A stretch of 64,000 nt of DNA from Silanimonas sp. (lineage in GTDB: Bacteria > Pseudomonadota > Gammaproteobacteria > Xanthomonadales > Xanthomonadaceae). The notes beneath the pieces are model-generated. The model was not told the DNA's origin and did no database searches. It was given only the letters and a program-made list of their open reading frames with translations. Positions 7,025-28,129 of the stretch are shown one piece after another. The position numbers were made by a program, and so were the translations under genes. Positions within the stretch are counted from its first letter, which is position 1; the number at the start of each line of letters is the position of its first letter. The DNA is taken from positions 1-64,000 of the forward strand of contig BPKK01000005.1 in assembly GCA_026005095.1 (NCBI GenBank), written 5' to 3'.

Positions 7025-8108
7025 AGAGGTCGAGGGTGGCCTGCTGCATGGCCGCCAGAGTGTAGGGAATGTGGGCCGGCGGCGCGGGCGGCGCGGCCAG
7101 CAGGGCGCGGGCACGTTCCAGCAGGGCTGCGGCATCGCCCGTCGGCACCGCGCCCTCGGGCTGCAGGGCGGCGAGCTGCTCACCCACCCCGCCGTGGTCC
7201 CAGCCCAACACCGGAGTGCCCACGGCCAGCGCTTCCACCACGGTACGGCCGAAGGCCTCGGGCTTGTCGGAGAGCTGCAGCACGAGGTCGGCCCCGGCAT
7301 AGGCGGGCACCACCTCGCTGCGCGGCGGGCTGATGCGCAGCCAGGCCGCCACGCCGCGCGCCGTGGCCGCGGCCTCGAGGGCGGCGAGATAGGCCTCGCG
7401 GCCCGGCTCGCGGCTGCCCAGCAGCCACAGCGCGGCAGGCTCACCGGCGGCGCGCAGGCCGGCCAGCAGATCCACGGCATGGGCATGGCCCTTGAGCCGG
7501 GTGCCGCGCCCCGGCATCAGCAGCAGGCGGGTGTCGGCGGGCAGGCCGAGTTCTTCCAGCACCGCCGCCCGGGCTGCCGGATCGGGCCGCGGATGGCGCG
7601 GGAAGCACGCCACGTCCACGCCGCGTGGAATCACCACCAGCCGTGCTGCCGCATGGGGCCAGTGCCGCAGCACATGGCGGCGCACGGTCTCGGAGACCCC
7701 GATCACCACATCGCCGCGGGTCATCACCCCGCTGTAGCAGCCGGGCGAGTTGAGGCCATGCACGGTGGTGACGAAGGCCGGGCGCGGCGAAAGGCCGCGC
7801 AGCGCGGCGAGCGCAAGCCAGGCCGGCAGGCGCGAGCGGGCATGCACGATGTCGGGGCGGAGGCCTGCCAGCAGGCGACGCAGCGCGGGGATGCGGAAAG
7901 GCGTGGCCAGCGACTTCTCGCCGATGGCGAGGCGGTGATGGGTACTGCCTGCGGCCTCCAGCGCTGGCACCAGGCGCCCCCCGGCCGAAATCACGTGCGA
8001 AGCATGGCCTGCGGCGACGAGAGCCTCGGCGATTTCCAGGGTGGAACGCTCGACCCCGCCCGACTCGAGCGCAGGCAGCAGCTGGACGACCGTGAGCCGA
8101 CGCGCCAC
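7005..8108 (-). CDS. Glycosyltransferase family 4-like protein
   Basis: LPALESGGVERSTLEIAEAL...VLQLSDKPEAFGRTVVEALAVGTPVLGWDHGGVGEQL. Confidence 0.88.
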   Translation of the reverse strand: MARRLTVVQLLPALESGGVERSTLEIAEALVAAGHASHVISAGGRLVPALEAAGSTHHRLAIGEKSLATPFRIPALRRLLAGLRPDIVHARSRLPAWLALAALRGLSPRPAFVTTVHGLNSPGCYSGVMTRGDVVIGVSETVRRHVLRHWPHAAARLVVIPRGVDVACFPRHPRPDPAARAAVLEELGLPADTRLLLMPGRGTRLKGHAHAVDLLAGLRAAGEPAALWLLGSREPGREAYLAALEAAATARGVAAWLRISPPRSEVVPAYAGADLVLQLSDKPEAFGRTVVEALAVGTPVLGWDHGGVGEQLAALQPEGAVPTGDAAALLERARALLAAPPAPPAHIPYTLAAMQQATLDLYARIAA

Positions 8109-25377: not shown

Positions 25378-25956
25378 ATGAAGCCCTGGCTGCAATGGAC
25401 GCTGATCGCCGGCTTCGCCCTCGGCAGCGCCGCGCTCGGCCTCTGGCTGCGTGGCGAGTTCGATGCCGCGCGGCGCGCCGCGGTGCCCGAGGGCCTGAAG
25501 GTCGTTGCGCTTGGCGAGTCGGCAGAGCCGCTGCTGGGCACCACCCTCGATGGCCGCAACCAGCTCCTGCCCGGCGAAGGCCGCTGGCGGCTGATCAACT
25601 TCTGGGCCAGTTGGTGCCCGCCCTGCGTGAAGGAGCTGCCGGCCCTCGATGCCTTCCACCGGGCGCAGGGCGAGGGCGGCGTGCAGGTGATCGGCGTGGC
25701 CCTCGAGGACCCGGCAGACGCCCGCGCCTTCCTCGAGCGCCGGCCGGTGGGCTTCCCGGTCTTCGCCGAGCCGAACTCCCCGCGCGACAGCTCGGTGCGC
25801 CTCGGCAACACCCGCGGCCTGCTGCCCTACACCGTGCTCATCGACCCCGAGGGCCGGCTGGTGGCCACGCATTCCCGGCCTTTCGACGAGGCCAGCGACG
25901 TGGCGGACTGGGTGGAGAAGGCCCGGGCCCGGGGCTGTCTGAAATTTTGTGTGTGA
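25378..25956 (+). CDS. TlpA family thioredoxin-like disulfide reductase; C-terminal tail altered by IS256-family insertion
   Basis: LINFWASWCPPCVKELPALDAFHRAQG; last residues GCLKFCV* are encoded by the IS terminus. Confidence 0.9.
   Translation: MKPWLQWTLIAGFALGSAALGLWLRGEFDAARRAAVPEGLKVVALGESAEPLLGTTLDGRNQLLPGEGRWRLINFWASWCPPCVKELPALDAFHRAQGEGGVQVIGVALEDPADARAFLERRPVGFPVFAEPNSPRDSSVRLGNTRGLLPYTVLIDPEGRLVATHSRPFDEASDVADWVEKARARGCLKFCV
25922..25930. repeat. Target-site duplication, left copy
   Basis: cccgggccc, repeated at 27282-27290. Confidence 0.75.
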
Positions 25957-27281
25957 GGCGGTTTTCTGAATCGACCTTCGTGCCGCTCAGCGCGGCGCGA
26001 GGGTGAAGCGGTCGCCGTACAGTATCGCGAACTGGTTCATCGCTGATTTCCACTCCTTGCTCGCCCGCTTCCAGTCGGCGGTGATGTTGCGCAGGGCCAG
26101 CCAGATCAGCTTGGTGGCGGCCTCGTCGCTCGGGAAATGCCCGCGGCTCTTGATGATCTTGCGCAGCCGCGAATGCACGCTCTCGATGGCATTGGTGGTG
26201 TAGATGATCCGCCGCACCTCGGGCGGAAAGGCGAAGAACGGGATCACCCGGCTCCAGGCCCGCCGCCAGGCCGCCACGACGGTCGGGAAGCGCTGGCCCC
26301 AAGGGCCTGCCTCGAACGCGTCCAGCTCAGCTTCCGCAGCCTCCGCGCTGGGCGCGGTGTAGACGGGCTTGATGGCCGCCGCCAGCGCCTTGCGGTCCTT
26401 CCAGCTCGCGTAATCGAGACTGTTGCGGATCAGGTGCACGATGCAGGTCTGCAGCGTCGTGGCCGGAAATACGGCCTCGAGGGCCTCGGGAAGGCCCTTC
26501 AGCCCATCGGCCACGCCGATCAGGATGTCCTGCGTGCCGCGCGTCTTCAGGTCGTTGAAGACCTTCATCCAGAACTTGGCGCCTTCCGTGTTCTCGATCC
26601 ACAGCCCGAGGATGTCGCGCGTGCCGTCGGGCAGCACGCCCAAGGCCAGGTACACCGCCTTGTTGCGCACCACGCCGTCCTCGCGGATCTTCACCCGCAG
26701 GGCGTCGAAGAACACCACCGGGTACATCGGCTCCAGCGGACGGGCCTGCCAGGCGCCCACCTCGGCCATCACCGCGTCGGTGACCGCGCTGATGAACTCT
26801 GGCGACACCTCGACGGCATACATCTCGGCCAGATGCCCCTGGATCTCGCGCACCGACATGCCGCGGGCGTACATCGAAATGATCCGGTCGTCGAAGCCGG
26901 CGAAACGCCGCTCGTGCTTCGGGATCAACTGCGGCTCGAAGCTGCCCGCCCGATCGCGAGGCACGTCGATCCGGAGCGGCCCCTCGTCGGTCAGCACGGT
27001 CTTGCTGCTACGGCCGTTGCGGTGGTTCCCGCGGCCACCCTCCGGGCTGGCCAGGTGCACGCCCAGTTCGGCACCCAAGGCGCGCTCGATGACGGCCTTC
27101 TTCAACTTCTGGAACACGGCCTCGACGCCGGCGGCGTCCATCGGGCCAGGGATCAGCTTCTCAAGCAGCTCGTCGGGAAGAATGGCGTCCGACTTCGCGA
27201 TAGGGGTAGATTTCTTGCGTGGCATGGAGGGCTCCTGAACATCGTCATGGTAGGCCCCTCACACAAAAATCCTGACACCCT
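25931..27281 (-). mobile_element. IS256-family insertion sequence, apparently complete
   Basis: Imperfect terminal inverted repeats GGCTGTCTGAAATTTTGTGTG (25933-25953) vs GGGTGTCAGGATTTTTGTGTG (revcomp of 27260-27280), 17/21 identical; flanking 9-bp duplication; intact transposase. Confidence 0.92.
25987..27225 (-). CDS. IS256 family transposase (412 aa)
   Basis: MPRKKSTPIAKSDAILPDELLEKLIPGPMDAAGVEAVFQKLKKAVIERALGAELG...VVFFDALRVKIREDG...GVADGLKGLPEALEAVFP...YTTNAIESVHSRLRKIIKSRGHFPSDEAATKLIWLALRNI; D-D-E residues retained. Confidence 0.97.
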   Translation of the reverse strand: MPRKKSTPIAKSDAILPDELLEKLIPGPMDAAGVEAVFQKLKKAVIERALGAELGVHLASPEGGRGNHRNGRSSKTVLTDEGPLRIDVPRDRAGSFEPQLIPKHERRFAGFDDRIISMYARGMSVREIQGHLAEMYAVEVSPEFISAVTDAVMAEVGAWQARPLEPMYPVVFFDALRVKIREDGVVRNKAVYLALGVLPDGTRDILGLWIENTEGAKFWMKVFNDLKTRGTQDILIGVADGLKGLPEALEAVFPATTLQTCIVHLIRNSLDYASWKDRKALAAAIKPVYTAPSAEAAEAELDAFEAGPWGQRFPTVVAAWRRAWSRVIPFFAFPPEVRRIIYTTNAIESVHSRLRKIIKSRGHFPSDEAATKLIWLALRNITADWKRASKEWKSAMNQFAILYGDRFTLAPR

Positions 27282-27290
27282 CCCGGGCCC
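27282..27290. repeat. Target-site duplication, right copy
   Basis: cccgggccc, matches 25922-25930. Confidence 0.75.
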
Positions 27291-27389
27291 GTCGGTGATT
27301 GCGGCCCCAATGGAACCGGAAAGGGTTGTGCAGAAAAATCGGTAGGGCATGCTGCGTCCGCCTGCAATTCACCCTCTGGTCGCCGGGAC

Positions 27390-27617
27390 TCAGTCTGCCG
27401 TAAAGACGAGCAAGAAGCTCAGCATGGACAAAATCAGACCGATGCCAAGGACAACCCTTAGTCGTTTTTCTTTCAGTTCGGGATCGCGCCGCACCCAAGC
27501 AACCAAGCGCGGACGCAGGAATATCCAGTGAATCGCCAAAAACAGCAGACAGACCGCCATCACGACCAATGGCCCCCAAGGACCAAAGGTGTCGACCAGC
27601 CAAGCGCCCGTGCTCAC
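27390..27617 (-). CDS. Small hypothetical membrane protein (~75 aa, two predicted TM segments); GTG start overlaps the upstream ORF stop
   Basis: VSTGAWLVDTFGPWGPLVVMAVCLLFLAIHWIFLRPRLVAWVRRDPELKEKRLRVVLGIGLILSMLSFLLVFTAD; GTGA overlap at 27614-27617. Confidence 0.6.
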   Translation of the reverse strand: MSTGAWLVDTFGPWGPLVVMAVCLLFLAIHWIFLRPRLVAWVRRDPELKEKRLRVVLGIGLILSMLSFLLVFTAD

Positions 27618-27916
27618 GGCCAACCTCCGGGGCCCGGGTACGGGCCGAGACAGGCAGCCGTGGCACTAGCTTGCTGACTCATGGCAAGAATGAGCCCGAC
27701 GGCAGATACCGCGCAGCCCACAGCACCAACCGGTGTCCAAACGAAGGTACAGGACGCCGCTAGCGCCCCGGTGGCCACTGCCGAGGCAGCGGCGTAGGAG
27801 TGGACTGAATCGCACTGCCTCTGCCGCCACTGCTCCCATTCGCTGCGGTTCTGTTCCAAATACCACTGATCGAACAGCGTTCTCATGTCGCTTGTCGACA
27901 GAACTGGCAGCATCAT
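27614..27916 (-). CDS. Small hypothetical protein with Ala/Gly-rich hydrophobic hairpin (~100 aa; start uncertain, frame open further upstream)
   Basis: MMLPVLSTSDMRTLFDQWYLEQNRSEWEQWRQRQCDSVHSYAAASAVATGALAASCTFVWTPVGAVGCAVSAVGLILAMSQQASATAACLGPYPGPGGWP*. Confidence 0.5.
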   Translation of the reverse strand: MMLPVLSTSDMRTLFDQWYLEQNRSEWEQWRQRQCDSVHSYAAASAVATGALAASCTFVWTPVGAVGCAVSAVGLILAMSQQASATAACLGPYPGPGGWP

Positions 27917-28129
27917 TTGCTCACGATCCAGTGTCAAGACGCACGAACCTCCCCACTGAACCGGCAATGCGGACCATCCATACTGGGCATTGTGTGAGGA
28001 GGCTGGGCAGCCGCGGCCTCGCACCCAAGCTCTCAAACAGCTGCCATCTCCGGGGAAATTGCATCGAAACCCTAGACAGGCGGCTCTAACCGGGGCAGGC
28101 TGTGCGCCTTCGACGGCCCCCTGCCCGCC

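What the first reader, a model, noticed from the sequence alone, without database searches (positions are those of the whole stretch)
27291..28090. Apparently lower-GC islet with two overlapping small membrane-protein ORFs (possible bacteriocin/toxin-immunity-like pair)
Seen: between the IS256-type element and aroQ there is a ~0.8 kb segment that looks compositionally different from its GC-rich neighbours. It carries two minus-strand ORFs sharing a GTGA stop/start overlap (27614-27617). The first has a charged N-terminal half (LFDQWYLEQNRSEWEQWRQRQCDS) followed by an Ala/Gly-rich hydrophobic hairpin (SYAAASAVATGALAASCTFVWTPVGAVGCAVSAVGLILAMSQQASATAACLG). The second is a two-TM ~75 aa protein. 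Inference: a translationally coupled small peptide plus small membrane partner, inserted between operonic housekeeping genes, resembles a toxin/bacteriocin-immunity pair. It could equally be the tail of a decayed larger gene, because frame 1 stays open upstream without a clear start.
Basis: partly seen in the sequence, partly recalled or inferred. Interest (0 to 1): 0.6.

Follow-up and report, generated by a model that had tools for sequence, protein, structure and literature searches.

The report
Stranded toxin-tip and immunity-like gene pair
A small low-GC patch in a Silanimonas genome is the cut-off tail end of a secreted-protein gene plus its intact little membrane-protein partner, one stranded copy of an undescribed mobile gene pair, found sporadically in related bacteria, that looks and behaves like a toxin with its protective gene.

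Summary
The islet is the lowest-GC stretch of the window (60.1% against a mean of 70.5%). It carries two minus-strand frames joined by a GTGA overlap. ORF1 is not a small peptide gene. It is the last ~97 codons of a secreted 245-325 aa protein that is intact in relatives, including Silanimonas lenta at the same redoxin/aroQ site. The front two-thirds are missing here. The pair is real: the large gene is followed by a 52-77 aa, mostly two-TM protein in every one of the 15 modules examined, at unrelated loci, always in a GC-poor cassette. Four modules, this one included, have a broken large gene but an intact small one; a Silanimonas MAG carries a detached tip-plus-partner directly behind a long copy, as in CDI orphan arrays. 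The tip has four invariant cysteines and a modelled hydrophobic helical hairpin. In the three long Silanimonas copies the start is followed by a slippable repeat (poly-C twice, a 7-mer x6), which suggests phase variation. No Pfam, NCBIfam, PHROGs, PADLOC or PDB match was found. Best reading: an orphan tip/immunity module of an undescribed membrane-acting antibacterial toxin family. Toxicity and immunity are inferred, not shown.

The parts
27614..27907 (-). ORF1: C-terminal tip (97 codons plus stop) of a secreted 245-325 aa protein; four invariant Cys and terminal YPGPGxW motif; N-terminal part missing
   Evidence: 76-77% identical to the tip of the 315-codon frame of S. lenta; DNA homology to S. 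lenta ends abruptly at 27907
27390..27617 (-). ORF2: 75 aa (GTG) or 77 aa (TTG) two-TM protein with a positively charged loop; putative immunity protein
   Evidence: 55-58% identical to the S. lenta partner; a partner of the same kind follows every family member examined
27614..27617 (-). GTGA stop/start overlap (translational coupling)
   Evidence: 4-nt overlaps also in L028, L033, L035, L038
27908..28033 (.). 126 bp without a detectable match in relatives, at the truncation scar where the N-terminal part should be
   Evidence: BLAST gap against S. lenta; no hit in 7 other Silanimonas genomes or elsewhere in its own genome
28034..28129 (+). aroQ upstream region; right edge of the cassette. 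Homologous to the ~90 bp upstream of aroQ in empty-site species
25932..27281 (.). IS256-family-like element with ~25 bp imperfect inverted ends, flanked by the direct repeat CCCGGGCCCG (25922-25931 and 27282-27291); transposase 25987-27225 (-)
25378..25956 (+). TlpA/redoxin-like gene, left neighbour; the IS sits in its last codons
28130..28594 (+). aroQ (3-dehydroquinate dehydratase), right neighbour

Best explanation
The islet is an orphan tip/immunity-like module left from a mobile two-gene cassette. In the intact form, a Sec-type signal peptide exports a 245-325 aa protein. It has a small beta-rich N-terminal part, a Pro/Gly-rich linker and a C-terminal tip that folds as a disulfide-stapled, hydrophobic alpha-helical hairpin. 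The tip most likely acts on the inner membrane of neighbouring cells from the periplasmic side, by insertion or depolarisation. The translationally coupled two-TM protein sits in the producer's inner membrane and protects it. In Silanimonas the long gene appears to be switched ON and OFF by slippage of repeats just after its start codon. In this genome the front of the long gene was lost and an IS256-type element landed next to the remnant, but the small membrane gene is still intact, as expected if it still protects against siblings or competitors that carry the full gene. Shown: truncation, pairing, cassette behaviour, repeats, conserved cysteines. Inferred: secretion, disulfides, toxicity, immunity, switching.
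For: Remnant: ORF1 equals the C-terminus of frames of 245-325 codons, and the S. lenta copy occupies the same site. Pair: in 12 loci with an alignable large protein or tip, the partner starts between -10 and +21 nt of the large gene's stop; 14 of the 15 modules' small proteins have two hydrophobic segments. Among 461 mechanical ORFs of >=150 aa from the same DNA, 4 were followed by such an ORF. Tip and partner similarity co-vary, Mantel r 0.82, p 0.0001, driven mainly by close pairs. Asymmetric decay: the large gene is broken but the partner intact in the window, L027 second module, L036 and L037. Mobility: 13 of 397 family genomes carry it; the redoxin-aroQ site is empty or lacks a recognisable pair in four other Silanimonas; all 14 loci have cassette GC 6.6-18.7 points below flanks; dS between window and S. 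lenta is 1.3-1.5 in the pair but 0.22-0.35 in the flanking genes. Chemistry: four invariant Cys and YPGPGxW; AF2 helical hairpin, pLDDT 82.6. Repeats: ATG followed by C10 (S. lenta), ATGACAG followed by C13, and a perfect 7-mer x6.4 in L028; only 6-7 C>=10 tracts exist in each of those two genomes.
Against: No toxicity or immunity was tested, and no known toxin, immunity or bacteriocin family is matched. No linked secretion system was recognised at the loci viewed, so delivery is unknown. The partner could be an anchor or chaperone instead. The tip model rests on 4 sequences, two-helix hairpins match many unrelated structures without significance, and the full-length model is poor (pLDDT 48.9). 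Repeat lengths come from draft assemblies and within-strain variation was not seen. Members outside Silanimonas lack such repeats. Four broken/intact cases are few.
Confidence: 0.6

Rival explanations
1. Plain pseudogene: a decayed two-gene cassette of any function (envelope or adhesin protein plus membrane partner) with no present role in this genome.
For: The N-terminal two-thirds are gone, no clear start or signal peptide remains, an IS element sits next to it, and 126 bp of unmatched sequence marks the scar.
Against: ORF2 is intact with overlap preserved, and the same asymmetric survival is seen in three other loci. dN/dS 0.23 for ORF2 shows constraint over much of its history, although it cannot isolate the time after truncation.
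Confidence: 0.25
2. The small protein is a membrane anchor, assembly factor or chaperone for a secreted structural or sensory protein, not an immunity protein.
For: Tight coupling and co-divergence of tip and partner fit any physical pair. Repeat-driven switching is common for surface proteins in general (own knowledge).
Against: An anchor has no reason to outlive its client in four independent loci, nor for tip-plus-partner units to stand behind a long copy (L027). Sporadic, GC-poor, site-swapping cassettes are more typical of conflict genes.
Confidence: 0.2
3. Stand-alone class II-type bacteriocin/immunity pair of small ORFs.
For: Hydrophobic Ala/Gly-rich hairpin and two-TM partner.
Against: Relatives carry a 245-325 codon gene with a signal peptide; the short form here is a truncation without leader or transporter genes.
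Confidence: 0.04

Closest known systems
Orphan cdiA-CT/cdiI modules of CDI systems (PMC3150448)
   Same: Detached C-terminal tip lacking its own start, followed by an intact small partner gene; tandem orphan behind a longer copy (L027); IS elements nearby; sporadic distribution
   Different: No CdiB/CdiA-like gene recognised, no long two-partner-secretion protein; the tip family is conserved rather than swapped for unrelated toxins; partner is a tiny membrane protein
Cdz system of Caulobacter, CdzC/CdzD with CdzI (PMC5380434)
   Same: Hydrophobic small-residue-rich membrane-active segment with a small transmembrane immunity protein
   Different: CdzC/D are 84-86 aa with type I secretion signals and adjacent T1SS genes; here a 245-325 aa protein with a Sec-like signal peptide and no transporter recognised next to it; CdzI has three TMs, partner here two
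SitA/SitI polymorphic lipoprotein toxins of myxobacteria (PMC5562445)
   Same: Signal-peptide-bearing toxin of the cell envelope without a dedicated exporter, cognate immunity gene directly downstream
   Different: SitA carry nuclease C-termini and lipoboxes; here a Cys-rich hydrophobic hairpin, no canonical lipobox, membrane partner; no sequence comparison was run
Xanthomonadales T4SS killing effectors and immunity proteins (such as the Stenotrophomonas system of PMC6759196)
   Same: Same bacterial order; toxin with adjacent immunity gene
   Different: From general knowledge those effectors carry a C-terminal recruitment domain and no signal peptide; here signal peptides are present and no Pfam domain was found

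Membership tests
CDI (CdiA-CT/CdiI) | Long CdiA with adjacent CdiB outer-membrane partner | tested here: not met
   Large proteins are 245-325 aa; no such genes recognised by eye in the ORF lists of the flanks, no domain match
CDI (CdiA-CT/CdiI) | Orphan tips without start codons, each followed by an intact immunity gene | tested here: met
   Window, L027 second module, L036; analogy of layout only
Polymorphic toxins generally | Conserved N-terminus with unrelated, exchangeable C-terminal toxin domains | tested here: not met
   All tips are homologous and are the best conserved part across the family; within Silanimonas the N-part is only slightly more conserved (0.40-0.48) than the tip (0.36-0.39)
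Toxin/immunity pair (functional sense) | Tip is toxic and is neutralised by the cognate partner | not testable with these tools
   Needs expression and competition assays
Toxin/immunity pair (functional sense) | Two genes genetically linked across diverse loci | tested here: met
   15 of 15 modules examined, against 4 of 461 control ORFs
Class II / Cdz-type bacteriocin | Short precursor with leader and dedicated ABC/T1SS exporter next to it | tested here: not met
   Large Sec-type precursors; no exporter recognised next to the loci viewed
SitA/SitI | Outer-membrane lipobox and nuclease C-terminal domain | tested here: not met
   No canonical lipobox by eye; tip is a hydrophobic helical hairpin without Pfam nuclease match
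Phase-variable (contingency) gene | Slippable repeat in the coding start, unit not a multiple of three, giving in- and out-of-frame states | tested here: met
   C10, C13 (both out of frame with the long ORF as assembled) and 7-mer x6.4 (in frame) in three Silanimonas copies
Phase-variable (contingency) gene | Length variation among cells or isolates | not testable with these tools
   Needs reads or several isolates of one strain

The most novel reading that the evidence does not exclude
A previously undescribed, mobile family of exported antibacterial proteins in Lysobacterales that kill through a disulfide-stapled hydrophobic hairpin, are countered by a cognate 52-77 aa membrane immunity protein, are phase-variable in Silanimonas, and leave behind orphan tip/immunity modules such as this one.
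Probability: 0.42. Interest if true: 0.72.

Novelty: new variant of a known kind. Interest (0 to 1): 0.52.

Why it matters
If true, it adds a compact toxin/immunity type that needs only two genes and no recognised dedicated exporter, found in an order that includes soil and plant-associated bacteria. Its own switch would let part of a population stay silent while all keep immunity. The candidate is small, has an isolate to work in (S. lenta DSM 16282), and can be tested directly.

Tried and rejected
Pfam, NCBIfam, PADLOC and PHROGs scans of large and small proteins: nothing above cut-offs, stray weak hits only. PDB sequence profiles: no hit. Foldseek of the tip model against the PDB: 68 matches, none with E<=0.001; generic helical hairpins, so not used as evidence. 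The full-length AF2 model was too poor to search. tblastn of one member against plasmids and of another against phages: no match, so no sign of plasmid or phage carriage. Only window proteins and proteins of loci from the search for related loci went into structure prediction, which kept the alignments shallow. Rejected: ORF1 as a chance frame (constraint and homology), ORF1 as a stand-alone bacteriocin, a genome-wide poly-C phenomenon (of 21 other C>=10 tracts inspected none directly follows a gene start; two have an ATG 9-11 nt upstream that does not look like a gene start). A first alignment was too divergent for the genome-contig scan; the second worked.

Full report
WHAT IS THERE. The segment 27284-28090 has 60.1% GC; windows of the same length across the 64 kb average 70.5% (SD 3.3) and it is the minimum. 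Two minus-strand frames are present. ORF1 ends with TGA at 27614-27616. ORF2 (75 aa from GTG at 27617, or 77 aa from TTG at 27623) overlaps it in GTGA. The left neighbour is a TlpA/redoxin-like gene whose last codons are occupied by an IS256-like element (about 25932-27281, flanked by the 10-nt direct repeat CCCGGGCCCG). The right neighbour is aroQ.

ORF1 IS A CUT-OFF TAIL. A search of 61 related genomes found ORF1 relatives in five, the window's own included. In the relatives the match is the C-terminus of a frame of 245-325 codons that begins with a signal-peptide-like stretch, in L002/L026, L003/L027, L006/L028, L004/L030 and L005/L029. L026 is Silanimonas lenta DSM 16282 and L027/L028 are a Silanimonas MAG, so the window is from a Silanimonas species. 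S. lenta and one MAG copy sit at the same redoxin-aroQ site. DNA alignment with S. lenta covers the redoxin up to the IS, most of ORF2 and the ORF1 tip, stops abruptly at 27907, and resumes at 28034 just upstream of aroQ. S. lenta has ~770 bp where the window has 126 bp. Those 126 bp match nothing in seven other Silanimonas genomes, nor elsewhere in the window's own assembly. No intact copy was found in the held assembly, which is 83% complete.

BUT THE PAIR IS REAL. A profile of the tip found the family in 13 of 397 genomes of the window's family. It also turned up in one genome of another family of the order (G556, L097), and in none of the other-class genomes sampled. I read 14 loci with 15 modules, plus L097 by eye. 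Every large gene or tip is followed on the same strand by a 52-77 aa protein (75 aa in the window). In the 12 with an alignable large protein or tip, the gap is -10 to +21 nt, with 4-nt overlaps in five. Fourteen of 15 small proteins show two hydrophobic segments with a positively charged loop, the fifteenth one segment. Only 4 of 461 control ORFs from the same DNA were followed by such an ORF. Tip and partner similarity co-vary (Mantel r 0.82, p 0.0001; driven mainly by close pairs). Both window frames show purifying selection against S. lenta (dN/dS 0.11 and 0.23).

IT BEHAVES LIKE A MOBILE CONFLICT CASSETTE. At all 14 loci the cassette is 6.6-18.7 GC points poorer than its flanks. Neighbourhoods are unrelated (mutS, redoxin-aroQ and others, annotated by eye only). 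Of the other Silanimonas species with the site in hand, two have only ~124 bp between redoxin and aroQ, one has ~180 bp, and one has ~430 bp without a recognised pair. Synonymous divergence from S. lenta is 1.28-1.53 in the pair but 0.22 in aroQ and 0.35 in the redoxin, so the cassette has a different history from its flanks, for example by replacement. In four modules the large gene is broken while the small one is intact: the window, the second module of L027 (a 65-codon tip standing directly behind a long copy and its partner), L036, and L037, which has a frameshift and lacks its start. Orphan cdiA-CT/cdiI modules have this layout, including tips that lack start signals while the immunity gene can be expressed (PMC3150448).

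ANATOMY OF THE TIP. Across 11 sequences the tip keeps four cysteines (C-x20-C-x11-C-x21-C, approximately), then YPGPGxW at the C-terminus. AlphaFold2 on four sequences gives two antiparallel helices, residues 8-58 and 62-90 of the 100-residue query (pLDDT 82.6). Foldseek gave nothing significant. The full-length model is poor but suggests a small beta-strand/helix N-part and a disordered linker.

AN UNEXPECTED SWITCH. In all three long Silanimonas copies the start codon is followed at once by a slippable repeat whose unit is not a multiple of three: ATG then C10 in S. lenta, ATGACAG then C13 in one MAG copy, and a perfect 7-mer (6.4 copies) in codons 3-17 of the other. As assembled, the two poly-C copies have their ATG out of frame with the signal peptide and the rest; the 7-mer copy is in frame. 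C runs of 10 or more are rare: 7 in the S. lenta genome, 6 in the MAG, 14 in the window's assembly. Of the 21 others inspected none directly follows a gene start. A rough estimate puts such a tract within 10 nt after one given start at about 1 in 100,000. Changing tract length would switch the protein on or off. This is a reading of draft assemblies; length variation was not observed. Members outside Silanimonas lack the repeats.

MECHANISM. Most likely the large protein is exported through Sec. Its disulfide-stapled hydrophobic tip would act on the inner membrane of neighbouring cells from the periplasmic side, and the two-TM partner would protect the producer. In this genome only the partner would still work, as a kept immunity gene, while the tip is a remnant. 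Truncation, pairing, mobility and repeats are shown. Export, disulfides, toxicity, immunity and switching are inferred. No exporter was recognised next to the loci, so delivery is the weakest link.

COMPARISON. It works most like orphan CDI modules (layout), Cdz (hydrophobic killer with TM immunity protein, PMC5380434) and SitA/SitI (signal-peptide toxin without dedicated exporter, PMC5562445). It fails at least one tested defining feature of each (see membership table). No Pfam, NCBIfam, PHROGs, PADLOC or PDB sequence match exists. I therefore rate it a new variant of a known kind, with toxicity still to be shown.

Noticed in passing
L026 (G001:C8) start of large ORF, L027 (G003:C14), L028 8266-8310: Slippable repeats (C10, C13, 7-mer x6.4) immediately after the start codon of the large gene in Silanimonas, suggesting phase variation.
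   Followed up: partly
window 25922-27291: IS256-like element inserted in the last codons of the TlpA/redoxin gene with a 10-nt direct repeat CCCGGGCCCG; the redoxin's C-terminus is altered by it. Copy number in the genome not checked.
   Followed up: partly
L027 6511-7174: A near-full-length gene and partner directly followed by a second detached tip and a related partner (tandem orphan module); the two partners differ with dN/dS 0.49, higher than other pairs.
   Followed up: partly
L079 (G000:C2:176492), L083 (G000:C3:219021): Very long poly-C tracts (22 and 15) in the window's own genome, apparently intergenic and upstream of long open frames; possible promoter-length switches.
   Followed up: no
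L075, L077, L078 (G003): Four poly-C tracts of the Silanimonas MAG lie after a recurring motif resembling CCTGCGGATCGCAGGC...CTGTCACAG, perhaps a dispersed repeat family.
   Followed up: no
L034 next to 7430-7612: Another small secreted Cys-containing protein (MKNRMGKVAAAITISLALSSGSVFAQGFPGPSEPCIYNG..., 79 aa from this Met) lies a few hundred bases downstream of the pair.
   Followed up: no
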